From Solen grandis (taxonomy: Eukaryota > Mollusca > Bivalvia > Adapedonta > Solenidae), in NCBI GenBank assembly GCA_021229015.1, contig CM037781.1, positions 34,268,759 through 34,332,758 on the forward strand: a DNA stretch of 64,000 nucleotides. The letters are read 5' to 3'. Below are positions 1-56,346 of the stretch, piece by piece. Both the position numbers and the translations under genes were made by a program. The notes beneath the pieces are model-generated. The model had not been told where the DNA came from. It did no database searches and was given only the letters and a program-made list of their open reading frames with translations. The number at the start of each line of letters is the position of its first letter. The stretch's first letter is position 1.

Positions 1-2100
1 GTGAAACAAACCGGTTTGTTTTAGAGTCTTGCCCATGCAAAGATTAATCATGAAGGAAAGATATGCTGTTATTATTTATTGCAAAGTACTGTCTTAGATA
101 TTAAAGAAACAAAGTTTGTGAAGACTTCACTTAAGGGAACATTGTAGTTAACTTATATATATAAAACAGTCCAAAATCTGTTTTCTCTCTTATCACTAAA
201 TGGTGACAATATTCATGTTTGTTTCAATACCATTGCGTTATGGAAGTCGAAACTAAATAAAAATGTGTTAAAAATCAATACTGGAGATACCGTGCTTAAT
301 AAACTGTTACGAAAAAAGAAAGTACTCAGGAGCGAAAATCGCAAAACATTCGGAGATATTTCGAACCATGACTGGCTGAAATTACCAGCGATAGCCAACA
401 ATAAATGGGGATAAAATCATGGCTATGTAACAGTTGGCGAAATAGTGCAGTGAATGAAGTAGTCAGTCTGTTCAGCATGGCAAAGGTTGTAGGTTCGAGT
501 ACCAGTCAGGTAACTTTTTATAGAAATACGCCTGCTTCTTATATCATTGTTTTAAATCATATTCCCAAAGCAGCATTCCCTAATTGATATTAAGGAGATA
601 TTAAATTTTCATTACTTTGTTACATTTCATGTAGAAACATTATATCAAGTAGAAAGGTATATACAACCTGAAACTCCCATTTTAAATTGGAATATCCTAA
701 ATATCCTTAAAATTAATTATACAAGCCAAGAATAGTAATGCTTTACTCTGGCTTCTTTTGCTTACCAACATATGATTGGTTCAAATACAGTTTTATACAG
801 CTGCGCCGTAAAAGGGTCAAGGCCTAAAATAGACTAAGAAATGCAAAGGCATTTATATGCTCCGGAAATTTTCTTTTGACGTAGTTTAGCATATATAGTT
901 AGGACCACAAAAATGATGAGTATAATAAAAAGACATTTTGATTAGAAATTTAAGAGATTATATGTGTATGATGCGAATTAGTATGCGAGATACCAAATAG
1001 CAAGCATTATGGAATAACATGGTAAACATGATTGAAAGAAATTATTAATATGTTAAAAGAAACATTGCATGATATCAAAATTGAATCTATCCGTACATTC
1101 CGAATAAAGACATTATTAGCTTCTGTTTTAATTAAAGGAAGAAATAGACCATTTTCTTTTATTTCTGCCTGTATCAATGATTTACTTTATAGTACTCTTA
1201 GTTGTATCACAGTTGCTTTAAATTATACACACACATATATATTGTTTGCGTCTTCTTTTTCTTTTTTTTAGCCTACTTAACCCGGCAGTGAATCTTAAGT
1301 ACAAATACGATATGGGTTGTCTGAGAGAAAGACATAAATATACAATATTTATCCAACTGAAGGTTGTCGTTGAGATGATACAAAAAAAAAATTCCAATTC
1401 CTTTTTCTCTCATATATTGTATACTTGATGACATTGAAACAAGAAAGCAAGAATCTATCATCTTGTTTTAGCATGTCTGTAACGTAGCTCTATTCTAAAA
1501 TCTAGAACCAAAATAAAAACAGTGTAGATAAACACAAGTATTTTTGTTTTCAAATTAAAAACCAAAATCTTATGTTCATATCCAAAAAACAAAGACCACC
1601 AAACACAAAGTTCGTTATAGACAATGTTTATGTTTTGTATTGGAACTGATATGTTTCATGCGAAGTAATCGACTGATACTTGAGTTATTTTGCTCACAGA
1701 TTCATCATGGTAAATACAATTTCCTGTCTGACGTTCTCATCAAATTATGATATAAGTTATACGGATTTAACTAATGCTATCCTGAAAAAGGTCTTCATGA
1801 AAAAAGACATGACAGTACCGGTAAATAGAGTTGACATTGCGTCTGGCATAGTTATTAGACACACATCATGAATACATTTGTAGAACCTGGCTCGAATTCC
1901 AACAACAATACTTATCACTAAGTAATATCTAAATTCTTAAACTAGACAGATACACATTCCACAATTACTTTTTTATGAAACGTTCAAGAACACGACTTAG
2001 TTCAAATGAATTATCACCTTAATAAATATCAATAATTGATAAAATATGAAACAGTTGAGTATTTTTATAAGAGAAACAAGACTGATAGTAGTATAGGGTG
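1..2100. other. Intergenic stretch, no gene seen
   Basis: AT-rich sequence with only short open frames that have no recognisable motif, no sensible codon pattern and no splice context. A stretch near 430-520 ends in GGTTCGAGTACC, which resembles a tRNA B box, so a degenerate SINE head is possible there but too weak to call. I see no other structure. Confidence 0.6.
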
Positions 2101-2297
2101 GCACTATGGTACCAAGGTACCATAAATTTTTTTTTATGGTACCGTGGTACCATAAATTTTTTTTTTTTTGGTACTTATGGTACCGAATCTATAGTACCGA
2201 ATGGTACTCTATATGAAAACAGAATCTATAGTACCGAATGGTACTCTATATGAAAACAGAATCTATAGTACCGAATGGTACTCTATATGAAAACAGA
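2101..2297. repeat. KpnI-palindrome cluster and 37-bp tandem repeat at the left Polinton edge
   Basis: 2101-2185 contains repeated ATGGTACC / GGTACCAT palindromes separated by T runs. It is followed by three tandem copies of a 37-bp unit (2187-2223, 2224-2260, 2261-2297) that begin ATCTATAGTACCGAATGGTA and end GAAAACAGA. Each unit holds the small palindrome TAGTACCGAATGGTACTCTA. The position outside the first gene suggests the subterminal or terminal region of the Polinton, but the matching right end is not in the window. Confidence 0.6.
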
Positions 2298-2331
2298 TTT
2301 ATGTAAAATTGTAAAAATGACAATTGTAAAA

Positions 2332-2371
2332 ATGTCCTTTCGAGACATTTGGGTTGGCCCTGAAAAGGGCC
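2332..2371 (-). terminator. Histone-type 3' end: stem-loop plus purine-rich downstream element, copy 1
   Basis: On the minus strand, 15 nt after the stop codon of the 2386-2607 gene, GGCCCT-TTTC-AGGGCC (2371-2356) forms a perfect 6-bp stem with a 4-nt loop. It is preceded by CAAAAC and followed by AACCCA, then TCTCGAAAGGACAT about 12 nt downstream and CAATTGT further on. Stem length, loop size and sequence, the CCCA flank and the GAAAG block are those of metazoan replication-dependent histone mRNA 3' ends (SLBP site and U7 snRNA target). No AATAAA lies just beyond. Assignment to histone-type processing is inference from sequence match. Confidence 0.8.
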
Positions 2372-2385
2372 GTTTTGTTTCTTCT

Positions 2386-2607
2386 TTAGATTTCGGTGAC
2401 ATTGTCCACATCGTGCTTGGTTTCAGTGACATCATGTTCATCGCGTTGCATCATCTGTTGTCTCAACATCATCTGATGTACCATGTTTGACAAAACCAGA
2501 TGGTATTCTGCAATATGGTCTTGCTGTTGTCTCCACTCATTGCGTTGTCGTTCGATCAACCCCATCAATTCGTGGATAAATTCATTCAGTTGCTGAATTT
2601 GTTCCAT
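2386..2607 (-). CDS. Small coiled-coil protein, unknown (Polinton left-end gene)
   Basis: 73 residues, beginning at an ATG 43 nt downstream of a TATA box (CTATAAAAG, 2650-2658). The protein is predicted helical and rich in Gln, Met and His, with heptad-like spacing (MEQIQQLNEFIHELMGLIE, then QRNEW and a QQMMQR stretch), so a short coiled coil is likely. It has no cysteine motif, signal peptide or membrane segment, and I do not recognise a family. The gene is framed by a promoter module that is duplicated upstream of the 3422-3895 gene and by a histone-like stem-loop 15 nt after its stop. That strongly suggests it is a real transcription unit despite its size. The open frame is undamaged. Confidence 0.65.
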   Translation of the reverse strand: MEQIQQLNEFIHELMGLIERQRNEWRQQQDHIAEYHLVLSNMVHQMMLRQQMMQRDEHDVTETKHDVDNVTEI

Positions 2608-2614
2608 GGTTGTG

Positions 2615-2810
2615 CAGCGAGAATATGACCGAATGCTTGATGCGGTGCGCTTTTATAGCCTTGAGGTGGATTGACCTACTTTCTACTGTTAGCGTACACC
2701 AATCAGAGAACGTTAGTTCTATCCAATGATTCAAGTTTAACCTTGACCTGAGTTGGATAGCATTGTCTTCGGCCTTGACATTGGGGTGGATTGACCTACT
2801 TTTGTATTGA
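2615..2810 (-). promoter_or_regulatory. Promoter module, copy 1 (TATA, CCAAT, repeated GGATTGACCTACTTT)
   Basis: Upstream of the 2386-2607 gene. Contains TATA box CTATAAAAG (minus strand, 2650-2658), two copies of GGATTGACCTACTTT (2668-2682 and 2788-2802), CCAAT sequences in the plus orientation near 2700 and 2724, and the block TTGGATAGCATTGTCTTCGG. The same elements in the same order and spacing recur at 3915-4095, so this is a duplicated regulatory module. The AGGTCA read on the minus strand of each repeat resembles a nuclear-receptor half-site, but that is speculative. Confidence 0.65.
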
Positions 2811-2961
2811 CATATCAGAATTGCTGTAAAATTAAAAAAAATTCAAGCCGAATTTGTAGTAGTGATGACTTTTTTTTTGTAACATTTTTGTTTTTAAAAG
2901 GTTTTTAATGAAAAAAAAAATTTGAATGGAATTTGAAAATAATGGTGACAATTGAGGTATA

Positions 2962-3000
2962 TTCTCTTTCGAGACATTTGGGTTGGCCCTGATAAGGGCC
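2962..3000 (-). terminator. Histone-type 3' end, copy 2
   Basis: Minus strand, 24 nt after the stop of the 3025-3321 gene: GGCCCT-TATC-AGGGCC (3000-2985), a 6-bp stem with a 4-nt loop in which one loop base differs from copy 1. It is followed by AACCCAAATGTCTCGAAAGAGAA, quoted here as AACCCA then CGAAAGAGAA; the latter is the closest of the four to the classic U7-pairing purine element. CAATTGT lies further downstream, as in the other copies. Confidence 0.8.
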
Positions 3001-3024
3001 GTTGTTTTTTTCACAGAGTAGTGG

Positions 3025-3321
3025 TTACTCTATTTGTCTATGAGTTTTCTTCAGCAGGTATTCAACATGTTCTATGGTGATGAAATGTGCTTCAATGATA
3101 TTTAAGATATCATCGTAGTATAGTTCATGAAAGTAACATGCACTCAAATTGTCTATGATACTCCTGAGTGTTGTTGTTATTTTAAGCGTACGTTGGTATC
3201 GGGCTTGTAGTTTAAGCGAACGTTGGCGTCGGGCTTCTATTTTGTCCATGTCAGATATGCAGTCGATAGTTATATGTGACTTATCCATAGCACAGTCTGA
3301 AAACGAATGGCATGAATTCAT
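3025..3321 (-). CDS. 98-residue unknown protein (Polinton left-end gene)
   Basis: Starts at the ATG at 3319-3321. The N-terminal third is Cys/Asp-rich and followed by a basic helix (EARRQRSLKLQARYQRTLK); the C-terminal half is a predicted helical pair (IIDNLSACYFHELYYDDIL and IIEAHFITIEHVEYLLKK). I see no catalytic or zinc-binding motif and recognise no family. The upstream gap to the next hairpin is only about 45 nt and has a weak TATA-like AAATAAAAG, which could also act as a backup poly(A) signal for the upstream gene. The gene ends in a histone-like stem-loop. The frame is intact. Confidence 0.6.
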   Translation of the reverse strand: MNSCHSFSDCAMDKSHITIDCISDMDKIEARRQRSLKLQARYQRTLKITTTLRSIIDNLSACYFHELYYDDILNIIEAHFITIEHVEYLLKKTHRQIE

Positions 3322-3366
3322 TTCGCTTGATACTTTTATTTACTTGGTTTGACAATTGTAAAAATA

Positions 3367-3405
3367 TGTCCTTTCGAGACATCTGGGTTGGCCCTGAAAA
3401 GGGCC
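3367..3405 (-). terminator. Histone-type 3' end, copy 3
   Basis: Minus strand, 16 nt after the stop of the 3422-3895 gene: GGCCCT-TTTC-AGGGCC (3405-3390), identical in stem and loop to copy 1. It is followed by AACCCAGATGTCTCGAAAGG and, about 20 nt further, ACAATTGTC. An AATAAA (minus strand, about 3331-3337) lies roughly 55 nt beyond and could be used for backup polyadenylation. Confidence 0.8.
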
Positions 3406-3421
3406 GTTGTTTTTTTCTTCT

Positions 3422-3895
3422 CTACTTCTTACTCTTTTTGCAATTTTGTATGTCTTTACAATGGGCTCCAAGTCCAGTCTTAGAATGGGATCCACCATCA
3501 TGCGGACGTTTGTTGGATGCTTCCACATTTTCCGGAGTGAAAGTGATAGGCACCACCAGCTTGTCTGTTTTCATTTTGATACGGCATTCCACTTCTACCA
3601 TTCTCTTTTGCAATTTGATGAGGTTGTTGTTCACCTCTTTGAGTTCCCTCAGAATAGATTGTCCAACATTATTTACTGGCTGCGCTGCCGGTTGCTGTTG
3701 CACTGGTTGTTGTTGCTGTACTGGTTGCTGCTGGTGTGGTGGAGGCTGAGGTTGATACGTTGGTTGGTAGCTGGGTTGGTATATCGGAGTCGGAGTGTAC
3801 GACACTGATGCCTGGTTAGCAGCTGTCGTCAGCTCATACAAATCAGCAGCCTGTATGGCGTTGTTAACGATATCAGAAGTTACGTAGCTTTCCAT
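3422..3895 (-). CDS. Pro/Gln-rich protein with C-terminal coiled coil, unknown
   Basis: 157 residues from the ATG at 3893-3895. Layout: helical N-terminus (1-30); low-complexity Tyr/Pro/Gln region (about 31-78) with YQPSYQPTYQPQ and repeated QQQPVQQQ; predicted coiled coil (about 80-108, ILRELKEVNNNLIKLQKRM); basic tail ending CKKSKK. It looks like a structural or scaffolding protein rather than an enzyme, but I recognise no family. It has its own TATA box (3931-3939) within a divergent promoter shared with the RING gene, and it ends with a histone-like stem-loop. The frame is undamaged. The Q/P tract also gives long false open frames on the opposite strand. Confidence 0.7.
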   Translation of the reverse strand: MESYVTSDIVNNAIQAADLYELTTAANQASVSYTPTPIYQPSYQPTYQPQPPPHQQQPVQQQQPVQQQPAAQPVNNVGQSILRELKEVNNNLIKLQKRMVEVECRIKMKTDKLVVPITFTPENVEASNKRPHDGGSHSKTGLGAHCKDIQNCKKSKK

Positions 3896-3904
3896 GGTTG
3901 GATA

Positions 3905-4146
3905 GTAGGATTATGATACGATGCAGTGTGCTTTTATAGTCTTGAGGCGGATTGACCTACTTTCTTCTGTTAGCGTACACCAAAGAGAACGTTATTTTTT
4001 CATCCAATAAATCAAGTTCGACCTTGACCTAAGTTGGATAGCATTGTCTTCGGCCTTGACATTTGGGGATGGATTGACCTACTGACCTACTTTTTTTCAT
4101 AACTATATAAGTGTTTTTTTTTTAAAAAAAGAAGGATGAAATCACA
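3905..4146. promoter_or_regulatory. Divergent promoter between the Pro/Gln-rich gene and the RING gene, with promoter module copy 2
   Basis: A 251-bp gap separates two opposed start codons. It contains a minus-strand TATA box (3931-3939) and a plus-strand TATA box (TATATAA, 4104-4110). Between them is the second copy of the module seen at 2640-2810: GGATTGACCTACTTT (3949-3963), GGATTGACCTACT (4071-4083), an extra GACCTACTTT (4084-4093), a CCAAT at about 4014 and the TTGGATAGCATTGTCTTCGG block. A short bidirectional promoter with CCAAT and two TATA boxes resembles divergent histone-pair promoters in layout; that parallel is inference. Confidence 0.65.
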
Positions 4147-4410
4147 ATGTCCGAACAAAAACTCTGGTTCGAAAAGTGTGGTGTGTGTTTAGAGGAGAGG
4201 GAGGAGGATATATATCACATAAACCAGTGTCAATGTCAGGACATTGTATGCGTCAGATGCTTCGCACGGCTTCAGAAGTGCCCGTTTTGTAGGGCACCCT
4301 ATCAAGTGTATGCCTGGCCTGCCTGTGTTTTCGCTAAACATGGGCCTACAGTGCGCTCAGCCTATTATGGCATATGGTTTGACCCTGATTATTCAGAGTT
4401 AGTAGGGTGA
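4147..4410 (+). CDS. Small RING-type zinc-finger protein, probable E3 ubiquitin ligase
   Basis: 87 residues on the plus strand, opposite to its neighbours. A RING-like cluster occupies residues 11-48: CGVC, then QCQC, then CVRC, then CPFC, giving eight metal ligands in C4-C4-like order. Such domains bind E2 enzymes and direct ubiquitin transfer, and viruses and transposons often use them to alter host proteins. The C-terminal 40 residues are rich in Tyr, Trp and Pro with no known motif. The start ATG lies 37 nt after the plus-strand TATA box. The mRNA would end in the fourth histone-like stem-loop, 34 nt after the stop. The frame is intact. Confidence 0.8.
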   Translation: MSEQKLWFEKCGVCLEEREEDIYHINQCQCQDIVCVRCFARLQKCPFCRAPYQVYAWPACVFAKHGPTVRSAYYGIWFDPDYSELVG

Positions 4411-4444
4411 CTCCGAGTAATTCAGGATCACAAAAACCAAATAC

Positions 4445-4480
4445 GGCCTTTTTCAGGGCCATCAAACTATATTCGAGAGG
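4445..4480 (+). terminator. Histone-type 3' end, copy 4, plus strand
   Basis: 34 nt after the RING stop codon, GGCCTT-TTTC-AGGGCC (4445-4460) forms the same 6-bp stem and 4-nt loop. A C-to-T change at stem position 5 leaves a G-U pair rather than breaking the stem. It is preceded by CCAAATAC and followed by ATCAAAC, CGAGAGGGAA (purine element) and CACAATTGT (4490-4498). It is more diverged than copies 1-3 and in opposite orientation, yet keeps every element in order. Confidence 0.75.
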
Positions 4481-4541
4481 GAATATATCACAATTGTTAA
4501 TGTGTAAGATAAACAACAAGAAATCAAATCAGTTTTAGCCT

Positions 4542-5679: not shown

Positions 5680-6974
5680 TTAATAGTCTGTGATGACTTC
5701 TCTGAACCCGTTAATCTCTATCTGACTGTCATATTCGGCATACACAATCACATTGATGGGGTCACCAAGAGCTGCACGAAACTGAAGCTCGATTCGCAAG
5801 TTCCCCGTTTTTATAGGATGCAGCTGTCCCTCTTCTGATCCTTGATCTGGCGTTAAGTCAATACCCCACAGTGTGTACCCCTGCATGTAATCGTCCATTG
5901 TCAGACCCATGGAGCGGTTTAAACCGAGTGATCCCGTGGCTTGATGCAGGGACATGTATGATCTCAAAATTTCTCCTGTGGGAAAGTTAGGCTGGAACGG
6001 CAAGTTGTGTGTCGTCTTTCCGTCTACACTGACTTCTAACTTAGACAAGTTGAAATGTTGAAAATCAAATGGGTTGGTTGCCAGATCACCGTTCATGTCT
6101 GTATTCTTTACCAGGCCTAGAATGATACGTTTGGGTAACTGTCCTTGAAATAAATGATCTTCGATCTTTGATCGTTGGCCTGCAGGAATGGTGAAAGTTT
6201 TTACCTCAGCTCGGCGAATTGGGATCTTCATGCCATGTTGAGCGATGGTCTGGTTTAAGTTGTTGGCCACTACGGGTAACAGGTCAACAGTCCGAACATT
6301 GAATCCAGCTTGAAGTAACTGGATTTTTGCCTCTGTTCCAAACAGGCAAAAACTGACTGGGGTTCTGTTGAGTCGCAGCCGTATCTCTACACCATTGGGA
6401 AGGTACTTGTCTTGCAAACACAGGTCTAAATGCAGACGTCCGCACATTTCCAGAACACGACTCCGGTGGATACGTGTTCTTCTTTTAGTAAATCCTTCAT
6501 TATCTTCCGCAACTGTATGCTCTTGCATATGACCCGCCGTGTCAGGACTCCACATTTCCGTAGCGTAGAGCTGTGTTGATTTACTGTCCGTAGAATAAGA
6601 CAGCAAATTCTCAATGTAGGCCCGGTACGCATATGTGTCAGCATTATTGGTGATCAGTTTGTTGTTCAGATACACATCAATACTGCTAAACAAGCTGTGG
6701 AAGAAATTATTTACTGTGGATGTTTCTCCATCAGCAGCCAGATTAGTGCCATCAGGTTTGACTACTTTGACTTTCAGGTACAAGTAGCTCTGGTTGATAT
6801 CAGTCCACTTTTCTGATTGAGCAGGAATTACAAATTCAATGGAGATGAATTGCTCAGTGCTGACACAGGATAATGTTCTGTCCACTGTGCATCTTGCATT
6901 GCTGTCATGGTAGGTGGAACATGTGACACATCAAGTTCAGTTTTGCTACACTCACAAGAGCCGTGTTGCATCAT
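5680..6974 (-). CDS. Major capsid protein, double jelly-roll (F54H12.2-like), frameshifted near N-terminus
   Basis: Forms the capsomer of the predicted Polinton particle. The main frame (5680 to about 6840) matches the F54H12.2-like family used for animal Polinton capsid genes. Recognisable blocks include NNFFHSLFSSIDVYLNN, YAYRAYIENLLSY, GRLHLDLCLQDKYL, FTIPAG, QLPKRIILGLV, QPNFPTGEILRSYMSL, GYTLWGIDLTP and the C-terminal EINGFREVITDY. The natural N-terminus starts at ATG 6972-6974 in another frame (CSKTELD, then VPPT), and joins the main frame after a 1-nt loss near 6838-6841. No in-frame stop is seen elsewhere. The family's usual length is about 430-450 residues, consistent with this span. 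It starts 10 nt after the stop of the upstream gene. Confidence 0.9.
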
Positions 6975-8347: not shown

Positions 8348-9442
8348 TTATACTAAATGCGATTTTGGAATCCAACTGTTAAACTTTTTAGGATATCCAA
8401 GCCACTTGACTTTCACTTCTTGAAAAGTTTTACCGCCTACACGCCTTGTACGCCGATCAAGAACTGATTCCACTTCGTATAGCTCATCATCTTTTATATG
8501 TTGAATTTCATCCCTGTAGAAGGATCCGGCGATAGTTTCTCCAGCCAAGTCTTCCAGTTTTTACGGTCAATGGATGTGTTCTGTTGATGCGAACCACTTT
8601 GAACAATTCCACTGTCCAGTTGGGTAGATAGCCTTTGGCAAATGTTTGCTTGGTTTTATTGATGCGCACTATATCACCCACTTTCAAATCAGTTGATTTC
8701 TTTTTTTTTTTTGATGGTTGCCATACAATGTCTTGGTGACTTCATGCTCATTTTCTCTAGACACAGATGCAGGGGTACGTCCGATGCTTCGATGAAAACG
8801 ATGATTGTAGCCATGTACCAATAGTTGCAGTACATCCACATAATGACGGGTCTTGTGATGAGTAAAATATTTCCACATTCTTGATTTAAGCGTACGTTGA
8901 AAACGTTCAACAATACTCGCTTTAGTTTCTGGGTTTTCAGACGTGAAGAAATGAATGTCATGCTTGTCTAGAAACTTCTGAAAGTCTTTGTTCAAAAATT
9001 CTCGGCCTTTGTCTGTTTGCAAAGAGAGTGGTTTTCGACCTTCTTTTAGAATAGACTGAAAGGCTTGGATGAGCGTCTTTCCAGTTTTGTCAATGATGGG
9101 TATTACCCAAGCATATTTTGAAAACACATCAATGACACATAGTAAGTAGCGATATGGTGAATTCTCTTTGTACATACGTTGCATATCTGCGAGATCAGCT
9201 TGCCATTGATGATCGATACCTCCTACCACAGTCTGTCGACGTCGAAATTTTCGTCGTATTGTTTTATGCAACGTGTAGGTTCTTTGACTTCTCAACCAAT
9301 CTCGTACATCCTCTAAAGTGATAGATTTCAACTGTTTTTTCGCTGCCTTGTAGAGTCCATGAATTCCTCCAAAACTCGTAGGATTATCAGTATCATAGTA
9401 CAGGTGACGAAGTAACGTGTCCTTCTTTAGTAGGCGTCCCAT
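8348..9442 (-). CDS. Retroviral-type DDE integrase with SH3-like and chromodomain (Polinton INT), frameshifted
   Basis: Joins element ends to host DNA. ATG at 9440-9442. The N-terminal zinc-less helical region (LRHLYYDTDNPTSFGGIHGL) precedes the catalytic core with Asp83 (WQADLADM), Asp144 (LQTDKGREF) and Glu179 (SIVERFQRTLK), the spacing of DD35E enzymes. A long A run at about 8699-8710 shifts the frame. The SH3-like part (VGDIVRINKTK, about 8560-8690) is in the second frame. A further shift at about 8560-8568 leads to a chromodomain (YEVESVLDRR, then VKWLGYPKKFNSWIP) ending at 8348. Chromodomain tails steer integration to marked chromatin in related elements. Both breaks lie in homopolymer A runs, so they may be sequencing errors. 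The gene overlaps the upstream gene's end by 16 nt. Confidence 0.9.
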
Positions 9443-13899: not shown

Positions 13900-13999
13900 N
13901 NNNNNNNNNNNNNNNNNNNNNNNNNNNNNNNNNNNNNNNNNNNNNNNNNNNNNNNNNNNNNNNNNNNNNNNNNNNNNNNNNNNNNNNNNNNNNNNNNNN
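13900..13999. other. Assembly gap (100 N)
   Basis: Exactly 100 Ns, a conventional placeholder for a gap of unknown size. The Polinton stops here on the left side, and unrelated host-type sequence begins at 14000, so the missing part probably includes the 5' two-thirds of polB and the right end of the element. Confidence 0.95.
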
Positions 14000-14812: not shown

Positions 14813-15054
14813 TTAACCCTTTCCCTCATAGAGGAAACCATGAAAAGACATATGCGAACAACATAAAACCAGATCAGCCTGCGAGTAACTGGCAGGCTGA
14901 TCAGGTTTTATGCTGTTTGTTGCTCCTCAGTGGTCTGTAAATGAGGATTTTGTAATTAAATTTGGTAAAGTTTAACTGTGGTTTTCTGCAGATCAGGCTT
15001 TATGTGGTACCTATTGAGTGCATCAAAATGAGTCTATATGAGGGAAAGGGTTAA
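14813..15054 (+). mobile_element. piggyBac-like MITE with palindromic core, copy 1
   Basis: Flanked by TTAA on both sides. Terminal inverted repeats CCCTTTCCCTCATA ... TATGAGGGAAAGGG. The interior has a near-perfect palindrome around CAGATCAGCCTGCGAG/TAACTGGCAGGCTGATCAGG. TTAA target duplication plus CCC...GGG ends is the piggyBac superfamily signature. It has no coding capacity. Confidence 0.85.
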
Positions 15055-15218
15055 TGCTGCCCACATACTTTGAATAATAAGTTATCATGATATGACCAGT
15101 AAGCAGGCAAGTGAAGATGTCTGTGTCAAGGATATTATATAAGTTATAGCCATTTTTTCTATGTCAGAGCTGTATTCAGGACTATTTCTAGTTTATCAGT
15201 ATCAGAGCCAAATATTTC

Positions 15219-15460
15219 TTAACCCTTTCCCTCATATAGACTCATTTTGACGCACTCAGTAAGTATCACATAAAGCCTGATCTGCAGAAAACCACAGTTA
15301 AATCTTACCAAATTTAATTACGAAATCCTCATTTCCAGACCACTGAGGAGCAGCGAACAGCATAAAACCTGATCAGCCTGCGAGTTACTTGCAGGCTGAT
15401 CTGGTTTTATGCTGTTCGCATAGGTCTTTTCTTGGTTTCCTCTATGAGGGAAAGGGTTAA
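15219..15460 (-). mobile_element. piggyBac-like MITE, copy 2
   Basis: Same family in inverted orientation, TTAA at 15219-15222 and 15457-15460. Palindromic core CTGCGAGTTACTTGCAGGCTG. The right TTAA abuts the 11-bp repeat AGCTTGCTTGA of the neighbouring element. Confidence 0.85.
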
Positions 15461-15470
15461 GCTTGCTTGA

Positions 15471-15780
15471 AATAATGTGGAAAAAATCAACAACATTATT
15501 ATTTATATTACTTCAACGTTTCGGCTTACGCCTTCATCAGGATAACAATAACTTTTAAACATAAACAATGGAAACGACAACACCATGAATAACGTGACTT
15601 CAAAAAAAAAAAAAGAAGGAAAATGCAGACGTTATGCTTACTGTTTATAACGTCAAAATGAGGTAGGTACTGTTTTGGATATAAAATACAAACATTTCCT
15701 TTAGCTTATTACAATAAAAAACAGGAATAGGAAAAAACGAAAAACAGTACCTACCATGCAAGTAGACATAGGTTTTTTTT
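15471..15780. mobile_element. Unclassified 310-bp element flanked by 11-bp direct repeats
   Basis: AGCTTGCTTGA occurs at 15460-15470 and 15781-15791, consistent with a target-site duplication. The interior has the motif CAACGTTTCGGCTTACGCCT / TCATCAGGA, common in invertebrate dispersed repeats, and an inverted pair GTAGGTACTGTTTT (15663-15676) / AAAACAGTACCTAC that would fold into a hairpin. No open frame. Confidence 0.6.
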
Positions 15781-16029
15781 AGCTTGCTTGAGCATATAAT
15801 GCTCAGAATGAACTTTTATATTCATAAGATATTTGTTATTTGCAGCACTCAAGCCTCATCAATAACATTTGATTCAATGACAAGTAATTGAATGTTTAAT
15901 AAGATGTTATGGAGATCCTCTGTAAAAGTATTCAGCTGGAAAAAGGGCTTTCAGTCTTAGCAGAATACCTACCGTGATTTAAAATGTTTTTATTGAATGG
16001 TAAAAAGTTAAGACGATGCATAATCATTG

Positions 16030-16090
16030 ATGAGTGGTAAGAGCATCTGTTAAGTTACTTGGGGACTGTGGGTTTGATCCCCGGCTGCAA
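16030..16090 (+). repeat. tRNA-derived SINE remnant
   Basis: GAGTGGTAAGAGCATCTG resembles a tRNA D arm (A box), and GTGGGTTTGATCCCCGGC resembles the T arm (B box), about 40 nt apart. No full cloverleaf and no clear 3' body, so a decayed SINE head rather than a tRNA gene. Confidence 0.5.
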
Positions 16091-16103
16091 CCTGCAAAGG
16101 TAG

Positions 16104-16345
16104 TTAACCCTTTCCCTCATAGAGGAAACCATGAAAAGACCTATGCGAACAACATAAAACCAGATCAGCCTGCGAGTAACTCGCAGGCTGATCAGGTTTT
16201 ATGCTGTTCGCTGCTCCTCAGTGGTCTGGAAGTGAGGATTTTGTAATTAAATTTGGTAAGGTTTAACTGTGGTTTTCTGCAGATCAGGCTTTATGTGGTA
16301 CCTATTGAGTGCGTCAAAATGAGTCTATATGAGGGAAAGGGTTAA
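16104..16345 (+). mobile_element. piggyBac-like MITE, copy 3
   Basis: TTAA-flanked, plus orientation, with intact terminal repeats and a perfect palindromic core CTGCGAGTAACTCGCAGG. Very close to copy 1. Confidence 0.85.
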
Positions 16346-21980: not shown

Positions 21981-22222
21981 TTAACCCTTTCCCTCATAGA
22001 GGAATCCATGAAAAGACCTATGCGAACAACATAAAACCAGATCAGCCTGCAAGTAACTCGCAGGCTGATCAGGTTTTATGTTGTTCGCTGCTCCTCAGTA
22101 GTCTGGAAATGAGGACTTTATAATTAAATTTGGTAAGGTTTAACTGTGGTTTTCTGCAGATCAGGCTTTATGTGGTACCTATTGTGTGCATCAAAATGAG
22201 TCTATATGAGGGAAAGGGTTAA
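21981..22222 (+). mobile_element. piggyBac-like MITE, copy 5
   Basis: TTAA-flanked plus-orientation copy with terminal CCCTTTCCCTCATA / TATGAGGGAAAGGG and core CTGCAAGTAACTCGCAGG. Confidence 0.85.
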
Positions 22223-22328
22223 ATAGTATCCGGAACTGTTACATGTATAAGAAAAACATCAAGTAATGGCCACAATTAAATCTGTATTGTTTCACTTCAT
22301 TTATGTTGAGGATATTCTTGAAAAAACA

Positions 22329-22570
22329 TTAACCCTGTCCCTCATATAGACTCATTTTGACACACTCAATAGGTACCACATAAAGCCTGATCTGCAGAAA
22401 ACCACAATTAAACCTTACCAAATTTAATTATAAATTCCTTATTTCCAGACCACTGAGGAGCAGCACACAGCATAAAACTTGATCAGCCTGCGAGTTACTC
22501 GCAGGCTGATCTGGTTTTATGTTGTTCGCATAGGTCTTTTCATGGTTTCCATTATGAGGGAAAGGGTTAA
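22329..22570 (-). mobile_element. piggyBac-like MITE, copy 6
   Basis: Inverted copy 107 bp after copy 5. One terminal base differs (CCCTGTCCC). Copies 5 and 6 therefore form a head-to-head pair, as copies 1 and 2 do. Confidence 0.85.
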
Positions 22571-28559: not shown

Positions 28560-30565
28560 ACTGAGTAATCGGAAAGTCATTGAAGTCCCCGGATATTGAT
28601 ACAACCTGGGACCCCGGTAACTTACTGACCACACAGCTGCGTCATTTCCGTAAAAGATCCTGGCACTTCCGGTTGGTAATTCATACTTTTTTAAAGCTAT
28701 ATGCTGAGCATTTCTTGCCAGTTCCAATTTCCATGGATGCATCATTATGCGTGAGACGTCATAACTCATAAGTTACATCAGTCCTCGGGATCATCCGTAC
28801 CCTGGGACCCAGGTAACTTACAAGCAAGAACGTCTAGGTTATTAGTATCTTCCGTAGTATTTTCGTATATAATCGCTTTTCACGACAGAGTGATTCGAGA
28901 TCTGGGTTAGAAAACAAAATCCTGGTTTTTAATAAAATTGATGTAACATGCACAGTATCCTGGGTGTAAATCTGTGCTTCTTTTAATCCCCAATCAGCTG
29001 GATTTATAGTTCTTTCTGTAGTATTCTGCCAAGAGGTTCGAAAGTTACAAAAGACCTCGGTGTTTCAACAATGCCTGGGACCCATGCAACTTACACGCCT
29101 CAAAACAGTTATGACAAGTCGATTTATTCTCAACTTCCTTCATTTCCGGTTGCCAGACGGGTTATATTCCAAGATTAACAAGTTGCAGAGGTCTTGGGAT
29201 TTTGTTAAACCCGGGACCCATGCAACTTACACATCTTGAAATGCATCCAAATGGTTACTTCTACAATTCTCTTCCATGGTTTGCATCCAGACGGAGTCAT
29301 TTCCGAGACAAGTAAGTTGCAGAAGTCTTGGGAATTTCAAAAGCCCGGGACCTATGTAACTTACATACCTCAGAAAATGAAAGTTTACATGAATACACTT
29401 TCGGTTAATATTCTAGACGGGTACTATTCTTAGATAAATAAATTGCAAAAGTCTTGGGAATTTCAATAACCCGGGACCCATGCAACTTACATGCCTAAGA
29501 AAACATTTTCGCACCTGAATCCACTTCCGGTTGATTTTCTAGACGGGTTGTGTTCCTAGATAAATAAGTTGCAAAAGTCTTGGGACTTAAAAAAAACCTG
29601 GGACCCGTGCAACTTACACATCTTAAAAACACTCGCATAGTCTCCATTTTTTGGTTGTTGTTATCCTTCAAATATAACGATCCTCTTCCATGCTTGTGTA
29701 TCCAGATGGAGTTATTTTCGAGACAAATAAATTGCAGAAGTCTTTGGACTTTGCTAAACCTGGGACCCATGCAACTTACATGTCTCGGAAAGTGCGGCTA
29801 TATATCCACTTCCGGTTCCTGTTACATTTAAGACGGGTTCTGTTCTTAGATAAATAAGTTGCAGAAGTCTTGGGACTTCAAAAAACAACCTGGGACCCGT
29901 GCAACTTACACATCTTAAAACGATCGCATAGTCTCCATTTTGTTTGTTATCTTCAATACTAACCCTCTTCCATGCTTGTGATTCCAGACGGGGTTATTTT
30001 CGAAACAAATAAGTTGCAGAAGCCTTGGGACATTGCTAAACCTGGGACCCGTGCAACTTACATGTCTCGGAGGTGCGGTTATACATCTACTTCCGGTTCC
30101 TGTTCTTTGACGGGTTCTGCTCCTAGATAAATAAGTTGCAGAAGTCTTGGGACTTTGCTTAACCTGGGACCCGTGCAACTTACATGTCTCGGAAGTGCGG
30201 TCATACATCCACTTCCGGTTCCTGTTACTTCTTTGACGGGTTCTGCTCCTAGATAAATAAGTTGCAGAAGTCTTGGGACTTTGCTTAACCTGGGACCCGT
30301 GCAACTTACATGTCTCGGAAGTGCGGTCATACATCCACTTCCGGTTCCTGTTACTTCTTTGACGGGTTCTGCTCCTAGATAAATAAGTTGCAGAAGTCTT
30401 GGGACTTTGCTAAACCTGGGACCCGTGCAACTTACATGTCTCGGAAGTGCGGTCATAAATCTACTTCAGGTTCCTGTTACTTCTTTGACGGGTTCTGCTC
30501 CTAGATAAATAAGTTGCAGAAGTCTTGGGACTTTGCTTAACCTGGGACCCGTGCAACTTACACAT
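28560..30565. repeat. Minisatellite, about 125-bp unit, about 14 copies, homogenised at the right end
   Basis: Each unit contains CCTGGGACCCGTGCAACTTA (or variant), CACTTCCGGTTCCTG, GACGGGTTCTG and ATAAATAAGTTGCAGAAGTC. Marker copies lie near 28606, 28800, 29070, 29210, 29344, 29470, 29597, 29758, 29890, 30040, 30163, 30290, 30414 and 30541. Spacing is irregular and units are diverged on the left but nearly identical at 126-127 bp from 30040 to 30541. The minus-strand open frames at 29915-30456 are products of this repeat, not genes. Confidence 0.85.
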
Positions 30566-30599
30566 CTGCGGAACATAGAATGACCATTAAATCCACGTT

Positions 30600-54718: not shown

Positions 54719-56346
54719 CTAACCAGCACCTTTGATGACACACAGAACGTAACTTGCATTATTTGACTTTTGAACGTTAATGCCGTTTCCATACGGATGG
54801 TGTACATGAATAAGAAAGCCTTCCATTTCTGGATTAGGTCTCCACAGACGGACGTTTCCAGTAGGATGAAAAGCATAGACGACTCCTCCGTATGATGGAA
54901 AGAGACTCTGTGAGTTACCATATGCAGGAAACCGGTAACCAGCATTAGGTCCATCCTCTGCTTGAACATACAAAGATGTCAAATCTTTATCCATGTTGAG
55001 ATATTCAGGAAGCGATGCGGGCCATTCAGGAAAAATTATGTCCTTATTCTGACGGATGTGGTAGTTTTTCCCTGGAACAAAGGATTTAACATCCCATGGC
55101 AAATTTGAAAAGCGTGCCAGCCATCCCCGTCCCCTATTAGCCTATAGGATGGGTTCGGATTCTCCTGCATAAATCCTGTCCAAACCCTTATATACTTGCT
55201 ATTGAATGCCCAGACAGTTCCACCGAAGTCAGAGAACATAGTTTCAGCTTTCGCTGAAGCTCCTACCCCTTCCGAGATATAAAATTCATTTCTGCTTTGA
55301 CAACGAATTTGGATATTGACAAATCCTGGATAACTTTCAAGATTATGTGGTATTTCATGAAAGGCTTTAGTTTCATTGTAAATATCTAAGGGAATCCATT
55401 CAGACACAAAATCCGGTGATGGCCATTTGTCTTTTCCCCAAACCTTGACCTTTACATATGCATCTAAAGCCACCTGATGGTTGTTTCCGAGTCGTAAATT
55501 TAATGACCCTCCAGTGTTTATAATCGTGCCCAAAGCTTCTTCATTCCTTTGTAACGGAGCTGCTAGAATGACAGACTGATTGTTATACAGATAAACTATT
55601 CCACCGTATCTTCTACTCCTGTCATCGTCACTTTGAAACACAGAATCTCCACGGAATGTCCATCCGGCGTTTGGACCGGTAATTGGCCGTATTTGAACTT
55701 CAACCTTATATGGCAATATCCCAAGTCCGTGGTGTACCGTTCTTGAGCTAAGGGTTGCATCTTGTGATCTCATCAATATCCACTCACTCATAAATGAAGG
55801 ACTTCCATACTTTTTAATGTTTAGTTCCATATCTTTTTCTATCATCGCTTTTCGCTGTAAGTCAGTTTCCCTATAATTAACTCTGTCGCTAGCTTTCTTC
55901 AGTTCAACAGTTAATTTGCCTAAGGATGATTCGACGTCCTGGACTGATGCTGTAAAAGTATTCAATATTGTCTCCATTCCATTTTGATGCTTTTCATATT
56001 TATTCAATTTGTGTTTGATACTATCTTGGTGCAGTTTAACGTCTTTGAATGCGCGATATAAGTGTTGGTATTTAACAAAGCCACTGGATTCATTAGTAAT
56101 GATTTTGCTTTCGTATTTACACTTATCTTTGATATCATCAGGTATCATACTCATTTTTTCTTCCAGAACACGAACTCTTGACGACAGATTTGTGAAAAGA
56201 TGTTTGATATACGAAATATTATCCCAATGAACATCCAGAAACGCATTCGGTCCAAACAGGGTGTTCTTGGACGCAGATGCTGATAAATACAATTCATAGA
56301 ATATCACAATAGAAAATAAAGTCCGACTTAATGTCTGGAAACGCAT
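54719..56346 (-). CDS. Secreted coiled-coil protein with three tandem lectin-like domains, one frameshift
   Basis: The main frame (55036-56346, 436 residues) opens with a signal peptide (about residues 1-26). A coiled coil follows (about 40-170, for example VRVLEEKM and LGKLTVELKKASDR). Two copies of a roughly 125-residue domain come next: the first has SEWILMRSQD, VHHGLGILPYKVEVQI and GPNAGWTFRG; the second has SEWIPLDI, YPGFVNIQI and FGGTVWAFN. A third copy lies at 54719-55102 in another frame (FPEWPASLP, GPNAGYRFP, YGGVVYAFHP). The frames meet at G/C runs near 55121-55135, so one protein of about 540 residues with an indel is more likely than two genes. The domain is predicted beta-rich and resembles molluscan secreted recognition proteins, but I cannot name the family. 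Trimerising coiled coil plus repeated binding domains suggests a lectin-like role. Confidence 0.75.

What the first reader, a model, noticed from the sequence alone, without database searches (positions are those of the whole stretch)
2332..4498. Four adjacent Polinton genes end in histone-type stem-loop 3' ends instead of a poly(A) signal
Seen: 15-35 nt after each of four stop codons (2386, 3025 and 3422 on the minus strand, 4410 on the plus strand) is a hairpin with exactly 6 bp and a 4-nt loop, sense GGCCCTTTTCAGGGCC or one-base variants. It is preceded by an A/C-rich flank and, in three copies, followed by AACCCA; all have a purine block (CGAAAGGACA, CGAAAGAGAA or CGAGAGGGAA) about 12 nt on. 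Known: this is the SLBP stem-loop plus U7 downstream element of metazoan replication-dependent histone mRNAs, which otherwise mark almost only histone genes. Inference: this transposon has borrowed histone 3' processing to make non-polyadenylated, S-phase-coupled mRNAs for a subset of small non-virion genes. I know of no description of this in Polintons.
Basis: partly seen in the sequence, partly recalled or inferred. Interest (0 to 1): 0.93.

Follow-up and report, generated by a model that had tools for sequence, protein, structure and literature searches.

The report
Bivalve Polinton with histone-type mRNA ends
A virus-like jumping gene in what is probably a shellfish genome ends some of its genes with the same three-part signal that finishes its host's histone messages, and three of these genes carry a promoter word also found in front of host histone genes, which suggests that it has put them under the host's histone (DNA-replication) control.

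Summary
Four 6-bp/4-nt hairpins lie 14-34 nt after four stop codons, in sense.
The decisive test was against histone genes of the same genome. All five types end in stem-loop, purine block and a CAATTGTC-like box 28-32 nt after the stem; the Polinton ends have all three at that spacing. A model built only from ten host histone ends finds the four hairpins (E 9e-12 to 5e-7; next E 2.6).
The model finds 87 of 90 expected sites in 30 young copies. Sister copies have two more at the other end; the outermost two lie in the TIRs. Promoters of c1, c3 and RING carry GTAGGTCAATCC, also before host H2A and H2B but not H1 or H3. The host has SLBP. U7 was not found; there are no RNA data; other species were not testable. 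Ten searches of open papers listed no prior description.

The parts
2087..2386 (.). left terminal inverted repeat; 85% identical to the right end of another copy (L031 880-1165); it ends at the c1 stop codon, so the c1 histone-type 3' end lies inside the TIR
   Evidence: blastn of window 1901-2700 against right-end locus L031
2386..2607 (-). c1: 73-aa ORF, Q-rich, function unknown
2356..2371 (-). c1 histone-type stem-loop GGCCCTTTTCAGGGCC, 14 nt after the stop
   Evidence: RF00032 31.0 bits; host-histone model R1 62.4 bits
2333..2342 (-). c1 purine block CGAAAGGACA, within a second predicted hairpin
2320..2326 (-). c1 CAATTGT box, 29 nt after the stem
2668..2680 (-). promoter word AGTAGGTCAATCC, at about -72 of c1
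2788..2800 (-). promoter word AGTAGGTCAATCC, distal copy for c1 (about -192)
3025..3321 (-). c2: 98-aa ORF, function unknown; no promoter word of its own
2985..3000 (-). c2 histone-type stem-loop GGCCCTTATCAGGGCC, 24 nt after the stop; purine block 2962-2971, CAATTGT box 2948-2954
   Evidence: (R1 53.6 bits)
3422..3895 (-). c3: 157-aa ORF, Q/P-rich with a basic C-terminus, function unknown
3390..3405 (-). c3 histone-type stem-loop GGCCCTTTTCAGGGCC, 16 nt after the stop; purine block 3367-3376, CAATTGT box 3352-3358; an AATAAA follows at 3340
   Evidence: (R1 56.0 bits)
3949..3961 (-). promoter word AGTAGGTCAATCC in the divergent c3/RING promoter (about -65 of c3)
4071..4083 (-). promoter word AGTAGGTCAATCC in the divergent c3/RING promoter (antisense to RING, about -72)
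4147..4410 (+). c4: 87-aa RING-finger-like protein
   Evidence: several RING Pfam models, best E 2e-4, all below curated cut-offs
4445..4460 (+). c4 histone-type stem-loop GGCCTTTTTCAGGGCC (one G-U pair), 34 nt after the stop; purine block 4474-4483, CAATTGT box 4491-4497
   Evidence: (R1 41.5 bits)
5680..6885 (-). Polinton major capsid protein (F54H12.2-like); no histone-type 3' end
   Evidence: 71% to a Mercenaria mercenaria protein; no R1 match
8684..9442 (-). retroviral-type integrase (rve); no histone-type 3' end; AATAAA 24 nt after the stop

Best explanation
A young, high-copy Polinton of a genome that is probably a bivalve's carries a set of small genes (c1-c4 here, c5 at the other end in sister copies) whose mRNAs are most likely finished by the host's replication-dependent histone pathway: SLBP binds the stem-loop, U7 snRNP is guided by the downstream purine block, and cleavage a few nt after the stem gives short mRNAs without poly(A). 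c1, c3 and the RING gene also share a promoter word with host H2A and H2B genes, so the unit is probably a histone-gene mimic at both ends that ties this gene class to S phase; the capsid and integrase genes show no such 3' signal. Shown: the three-part 3' end equals that of the host's histone genes in sequence and spacing, lies after stop codons in sense, is present across copies, and the host has SLBP. Inferred: cleavage, lack of poly(A), U7 pairing, S-phase timing, and any benefit to the element.
For: Chance mean 0.06 against 5 found. RF00032 E 1.3e-6 to 3.8e-4 in 2.4 kb. Host histone arrays with H1, H2A, H2B, H3 and H4; ten of ten ends have stem-loop, purine block and CAATTGTC-like box. 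Host-only model R1: four hits in 64 kb, E 8.8e-12 to 5.4e-7, next 2.6. Stem-to-box spacing 28-32 nt in 18 of 18 ends, 10 of them histone, 6 Polinton. Exact 22-mer at 1,015 sites in the 1.32-Gb genome, reversed control 0. R1 finds 87 of 90 expected c2-c4 ends in the 30 best copies by RING protein, c1 in 19 of the first 20 of them, c4 in 6 of 6 copies reached through the capsid protein, and c5 and c6 in 4 of 4 right ends that had been chosen by the c6 pattern. Stem paired in 78 of 78 cells over 13 ends, with a C-G to U-A change on both sides in host H1 and in c5. Combined core varies less than its surroundings in c2, c3 and c4 (0.71 v 2.56%, 0.12 v 1.88%, 1.49 v 2.14%). Promoter word in 30 of 30 copies; GTAGGTCAATCC before host H2A (-91) and H2B (-83), GTAGGTCA before H4 (-80). 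SLBP domain over cut-off in two exons.
Against: All four window hairpins are below Rfam's cut-off. AATAAA or ATTAAA lies downstream of c3 and c2. c2 has no promoter of its own. Host H1 and H3 promoters lack the promoter word, and the H2B of the second array has it with one mismatch. U7 was not found. The 30 copies are the best-scoring, nearly identical ones, so retention there is weak evidence of selection; within the core the c4 stem-loop (2.5%) and the c2 box (2.5%) vary as much as the surroundings. By strict pairing rules c4 is intact in 4 of the 6 capsid-chosen copies and c5 in 3 of 4 right ends; 2 of the 43 hairpins listed lack the box. The diverged copies that keep paired stems (L089-L091, L093) were fetched because RF00032 matched them, so they do not test loss. 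The covariation is one pair, which 157 of 500 shuffles also reach. No RNA data.
Confidence: 0.82

Rival explanations
1. A Mimivirus/virophage-type 'hairpin rule': palindromes at transcript ends that serve viral cleavage and polyadenylation rather than histone processing.
For: Polintons are related to virophages (recalled), and hairpins end Mimivirus transcripts (PMC4402537, abstract and passages seen).
Against: PMC4402537 describes those hairpins as not conserved in nucleotide sequence; here letters, loop, purine block, box and spacing match host histone ends. R1 finds no such end at the capsid or integrase gene.
Confidence: 0.05
2. Passive capture: the element once picked up a histone gene 3' end, and its copies are relics spread by duplication and TIR homogenisation, without present function.
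For: c1-c3 ends lie in one 53-nt repeat family and the c1 and c3 promoters are duplicates; c1 and c6 are TIR copies of each other; the c4 stem-loop varies among copies as much as its surroundings.
Against: c4 and c5 differ from c1-c3 and from histones outside the three elements in the 69-nt alignment; c5 has the stem change on both sides; c1-c5 are all in sense and 14-34 nt after a stop; the combined core varies less than its surroundings; the promoter word is shared too.
Confidence: 0.08
3. The hairpins are DNA-level structures of the element (replication or transposition signals), not RNA signals.
For: Two of six lie in the TIRs, and one of these (c6) follows no clear gene.
Against: Four are internal, c1-c5 are oriented with the gene they follow, and purine block and box lie on the fixed 3' side as in host histone genes.
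Confidence: 0.02
4. The host uses this 3' end for many ordinary genes, so the element merely uses a common host signal with no tie to histones.
For: A 114-aa Cys-rich gene and a dispersed SGNH-hydrolase-like family also carry the signal.
Against: Of 52 RF00032 matches, 29 lie in the two histone arrays, 1 resembles the H3 end, 13 are this Polinton, 8 those two families and 1 was not read; none of the 51 was recognised as an ordinary single-copy host gene (read). But only 75 of 260,318 first-look candidates were scored.
Confidence: 0.08

Closest known systems
Metazoan replication-dependent histone mRNA 3' end (SLBP stem-loop plus U7 histone downstream element, Rfam RF00032)
   Same: 6-bp stem, 4-nt loop, A-rich 5' flank, ACCCA-like 3' flank in three of four, purine block, closeness to the stop codon; recognised by a model of the host's own histone ends.
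   Different: The genes are not histones but small genes of a Polinton; window scores lie below Rfam's cut-off; U7 pairing and the processed end are untested.
Histone genes of the bivalve Lucina pectinata (PMC6210712; one passage seen)
   Same: Stem-loop close to the stop codon in the histone mRNAs; purine elements near it in four of the genes.
   Different: No CAATTGTC box and no mobile element is mentioned in the passage seen.
Polinton/Maverick elements (PMC4028283 seen in the listing; content otherwise recalled)
   Same: Capsid protein, rve integrase, TIRs beginning AG, about 16.5 kb between the end hairpins in listed copies.
   Different: Histone-type 3' ends and a histone-like promoter word on part of the gene set; not described in any paper listed by my searches.
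Mimivirus 'hairpin rule' mRNA ends (PMC4402537, abstract and passages)
   Same: Hairpins that end transcripts of DNA viruses.
   Different: There the sequence is not conserved and the machinery is viral and cytoplasmic; here the sequence is that of host histone ends.

Membership tests
Replication-dependent histone 3' end signal | 6-bp stem with 4-nt loop of the conserved sequence, near the stop codon | tested here: met
   4 of 4 in the window, 14-34 nt after the stop; 26-36 nt in the five host histone genes of L029, by the coordinates
Replication-dependent histone 3' end signal | RF00032 score over the gathering cut-off | tested here: inconclusive
   0 of 4 in the window (25.1-31.7 v 34 bits); 10 of 13 Polinton hairpins among the 52 matches pass, but that list holds best candidates only
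Replication-dependent histone 3' end signal | recognised by a model of the same host's histone ends | tested here: met
   R1, from 10 host histone ends only: E 9e-12 to 5e-7, no other match better than E 2.6 in 64 kb
Replication-dependent histone 3' end signal | purine-rich downstream element | tested here: met
   CGAAAG or CGAGAG starting 13 nt after the stem, 4 of 4
Replication-dependent histone 3' end signal | no poly(A) signal | tested here: inconclusive
   AATAAA or ATTAAA about 50 and 75 nt past the stems of c3 and c2
Replication-dependent histone 3' end signal | complementarity to host U7 snRNA | tested here: inconclusive
   RF00066 found nothing with 65 of 388,410 candidates scored; a pattern gave 9 matches against 31 for its reversed control, none with a U7-like hairpin
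Replication-dependent histone 3' end signal | mRNA cleaved after the stem, no poly(A), S-phase coupled | not testable with these tools
   no RNA data held
Replication-dependent histone 3' end signal | host encodes SLBP | tested here: met
   PF15247 over cut-off in two neighbouring stretches at C9:6574048-6575410
Polinton/Maverick | capsid protein of the F54H12.2-like type | tested here: met
   377 homologues at E <= 0.001 (120 listed), best named Mercenaria mercenaria at 71%
Polinton/Maverick | retroviral-type integrase | tested here: met
   PF00665 rve 1.5e-13, over cut-off
Polinton/Maverick | terminal inverted repeats | tested here: met
   about 300 bp, 85% identity between the left end here and the right end of another copy
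Polinton/Maverick | packaging ATPase | tested here: inconclusive
   Pox_A32 16.9 bits, below cut-off 22.8
Polinton/Maverick | protein-primed DNA polymerase B | not tested
   region next to the gap at 13900; no search made
Mimivirus hairpin rule | palindromes not conserved in sequence | tested here: not met
   here the sequence is conserved and is that of host histone ends

The most novel reading that the evidence does not exclude
A whole class of Polinton genes are histone-gene mimics at both ends: a promoter word shared with host H2A and H2B genes and a three-part histone 3' end (stem-loop, purine block perhaps in a second hairpin, CAAUUGUC box), so that the element's regulatory genes are expressed with histones in S phase, at or like the histone locus body, and escape poly(A)-based control. 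At least two other repeated or multicopy gene families of the same genome have taken the 3' end too, making histone 3' processing a recurrent target of mobile DNA in this host.
Probability: 0.5. Interest if true: 0.95.

Novelty: new variant of a known kind. Interest (0 to 1): 0.88.

Why it matters
Histone-type 3' ends mark almost only histone genes in animals (general knowledge). A virus-like element with hundreds of copies that uses them, together with a histone-like promoter word, would link element gene expression directly to host S phase, show a way for a nuclear DNA element to make unpolyadenylated mRNA, and give a natural tool for dissecting histone gene control. Poly(A)-selected RNA data would miss these genes, so element activity may be underestimated. 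The CAAUUGUC box shared by host histone genes and the element may be an undescribed part of the histone 3' signal of this host.

Tried and rejected
Relatives elsewhere: the exact 22-mer had no match in viral contigs or genome contigs, and the capsid protein or its alignment gave no confirmed relative there. Other species were therefore not tested. Other Polinton families of this genome: a distant capsid query returned matches at 45-50% identity to the query, nearly all listed ones with frames of about 434 aa like this family's (91 of 1,046 candidates scored), so families with and without the hairpin could not be compared.

U7: Rfam model and a pattern both failed. The nine pattern matches were read; none has a U7-like 3' hairpin. 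Inconclusive, not evidence of absence.

A second hairpin around the purine block: predicted in Polinton ends (mean z -2.2 over six, two of which are TIR copies of each other and one of which, c5, shows none) and only weakly in host histone ends (mean z -1.2 over ten; 2 of 10 below p 0.05 and one at 0.050). Left as a suggestion.

12-mers shared with host histone intergenic DNA: 24 in the left end against 2.2 in shuffles, but one of three control regions was also in excess (38 against 16.4, partly simple repeats), and part of the 24 are stem-loop words. Rejected as a general measure; only the named promoter word and its position are used.

A loose three-element scan that ignored sequence found 5 in the window (the four plus one) against a mean of 3.0, largest 7, in random sequences: too permissive to mean anything.

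The 270-aa protein beside the 114-aa gene had no homologue at E <= 0.001 among 5.8 billion proteins (382 candidates) and none in phages.

Literature: ten searches over open-access PMC papers; I saw listings, plus passages of PMC6210712, PMC5011920, PMC7026596 and PMC4402537. No listed title or abstract start joins histone stem-loops with Polintons; only 20 of 172 papers were listed. Most subscription journals are missing, so this is no proof of novelty.


Full report
WHAT IS THERE. The window holds the left part of a Polinton: left tip at about 2087 (AGTAGTATAGGGTGGCAC), three minus-strand genes c1-c3, a divergent RING-finger-like gene c4, then a minus-strand block with the capsid protein (5680-6885), the integrase (8684-9442) and others, running into an assembly gap at 13900-13999. 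The genome has 1.32 Gb in 811 contigs. The nearest named capsid relative is from the clam Mercenaria mercenaria at 71%, so the host is inferred to be a bivalve; it is unnamed.

THE HAIRPINS. Each of c1-c4 is followed, 14, 24, 16 and 34 nt after its stop, by a 6-bp stem with a 4-nt loop in sense. The 16-mer with up to 3 mismatches occurs 5 times in the window (one being the reverse reading of c2) against 0.06 expected. RF00032 reports these four and no others in 64 kb, at 25.1-31.7 bits, all below the gathering score of 34.

COMPARISON WITH THE HOST'S HISTONE GENES. RF00032 over the own genome gave 52 matches at E <= 0.001, 47 over the cut-off (75 of 260,318 first-look candidates scored). Two tandem arrays hold H1, H2A, H2B, H3 and H4. 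Each of the ten histone ends examined has the stem-loop, a purine block and a box reading CAATTGTC, CAATTGTT, CAGTTGTC or AAATTGTC 28-32 nt after the stem. The six Polinton ends examined have all three at the same spacing, while most letters between the elements differ. A covariance model made from these ten host ends alone finds the four hairpins at 62.4, 56.0, 53.6 and 41.5 bits (E 8.8e-12, 2.5e-10, 9.3e-10, 5.4e-7) and nothing else in 64 kb better than E 2.6. Over 13 different ends the stem is paired in 78 of 78 cells, with one pair changed on both sides (C-G to U-A) in host H1 and Polinton c5; 157 of 500 shuffles also reach one such pair, so this adds little.

OTHER COPIES. An exact 22-base pattern (stem-loop plus AACCCA) occurs 1,015 times in the genome, its reversed control never; among the places listed, many cluster in twos and threes with one more about 15 kb away on the other strand. 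At the right end of another copy (L031) there are two more: c5, 19 nt after a 78-aa ORF and with the H1-type stem, and c6 in the right TIR. The left TIR (2087-2386) ends at the c1 stop codon, so the c1 and c6 ends are TIR copies of each other; no clear gene precedes c6. In the 30 best copies by RING protein (150 scored of 610 candidates), R1 finds 87 of 90 expected c2-c4 ends; missing are c3 and c4 of L044 and c2 of L061. c1 is found in 19 of the first 20 of these copies, missing in L077, and c5 and c6 in 4 of 4 right ends, which had been chosen by the c6 pattern; by a strict pairing rule c5 is intact in 3 of 4, and 2 of 43 hairpins listed lack the box. In six copies reached through the capsid protein (90-96% identical to the window there), R1 finds c4 in 6 of 6, but a strict rule in only 4 of 6. 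More diverged copies (76-87%: L089-L091, L093) keep paired stems, but they were fetched because RF00032 matched them, so they do not test loss; L091 has a degraded box, and in L094 the strict pattern did not match although R1 did. In the young copies the 29 core bases depart from the majority less than the rest: c2 0.71 v 2.56%, c3 0.12 v 1.88%, c4 1.49 v 2.14%; but the c4 stem-loop taken alone (2.5%) and the c2 box (2.5%) do not. The case for selection within copies is thus modest.

PROMOTERS. AGTAGGTCAATCC occurs four times in the window, all upstream of c1, c3 and RING, and in 30 of 30 RING-chosen copies. GTAGGTCAATCC stands upstream of host H2A and H2B in the first array (core at -91 and -83); in the second array it occurs at two places, by position upstream of the two H2A genes, while H2B has it with one mismatch. 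H4 shares AGTAGGTCAAT in the first array, with the core at -80. With up to one mismatch GTAGGTCAATCC does not occur elsewhere in the window; with two it occurs once more, at 54945. H4 and the c3/RING promoter also share GTCAAGGTCGAA. Host H1 and H3 promoters lack the word, c2 has none, and c5 has it in antisense. That the core resembles a nuclear-receptor half site is recalled, not tested.

MECHANISM. In animals the 5' end of U7 pairs with the downstream element and U7 snRNP cleaves 4-5 nt after the stem, giving mRNA without poly(A) (PMC7026596, passages seen). The host has SLBP. The simplest reading is that c1-c5 mRNAs are made and finished like histone mRNAs, while those of the capsid and integrase genes are not. 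Cleavage, lack of poly(A), U7 pairing and timing are inferred. AATAAA after c3 and ATTAAA after c2 leave room for polyadenylation as well.

OTHER FAMILIES WITH THE SAME END. I sorted the 52 RF00032 matches: 29 in the two histone arrays, 1 resembling the H3 end with no gene identified (L092), 13 this Polinton (12 read, 1 by position), 2 of a 114-aa Cys-rich gene, 6 of a dispersed SGNH-hydrolase-like family, 1 not read. Members of the last two families score 36.9-51.4 bits with R1; purine block and box were read in L033 and L034-L036, while L012 has no clear box. Use of histone ends by repeated or multicopy genes may therefore be recurrent here.

NOVELTY. No described case appeared in ten searches of open-access papers (named under Tried and rejected), which cover only part of the literature. 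The parts are known; their use by a Polinton appears new.

Noticed in passing
L029 and L030 (histone arrays); window 2320-2326, 2948-2954, 3352-3358, 4491-4497: A third shared box, CAATTGTC or a close variant, 28-32 nt after the stem in 10 of 10 host histone ends and 6 of 6 Polinton ends (2 of 43 hairpins lack it). I know of no description of it; no search was made for it by name.
   Followed up: partly
L034 1951, L035 1842, L036 3881 (minus); L095, L096: A dispersed SGNH-hydrolase-like gene family (Lipase_GDSL 23.4 bits, just below its cut-off 23.6) ends in the same kind of histone signal.
   Followed up: partly
L033 2737-3173 and L012: A 114-aa Cys-rich gene, beside three uncharacterised ORFs of 240, 154 and 270 aa in L033, carries a histone-type end (R1 51.4 and 38.7 bits); no significant Pfam match, and the 270-aa protein has no homologue found. 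Possibly an unknown endogenous virus.
   Followed up: partly
own genome: The Polinton family is young and abundant: 610 first-look candidates for the RING protein, 150 scored, all at 97-100% identity.
   Followed up: partly
window 3321-3358: c2 begins about 30 nt after the c3 CAATTGT box and has no visible promoter; how it is transcribed if c3 is cleaved is unexplained.
   Followed up: no
window 2105-2297: The TIR tip holds GGTACC-rich repeats and a 37-nt tandem repeat in three copies.
   Followed up: no
window 14843-16217, 22011-22537 and 28565-30570: Repeats that match Rfam miRNA families mir-1253 and mir-1990 far below their cut-offs, probably inverted repeats of interspersed elements.
   Followed up: no
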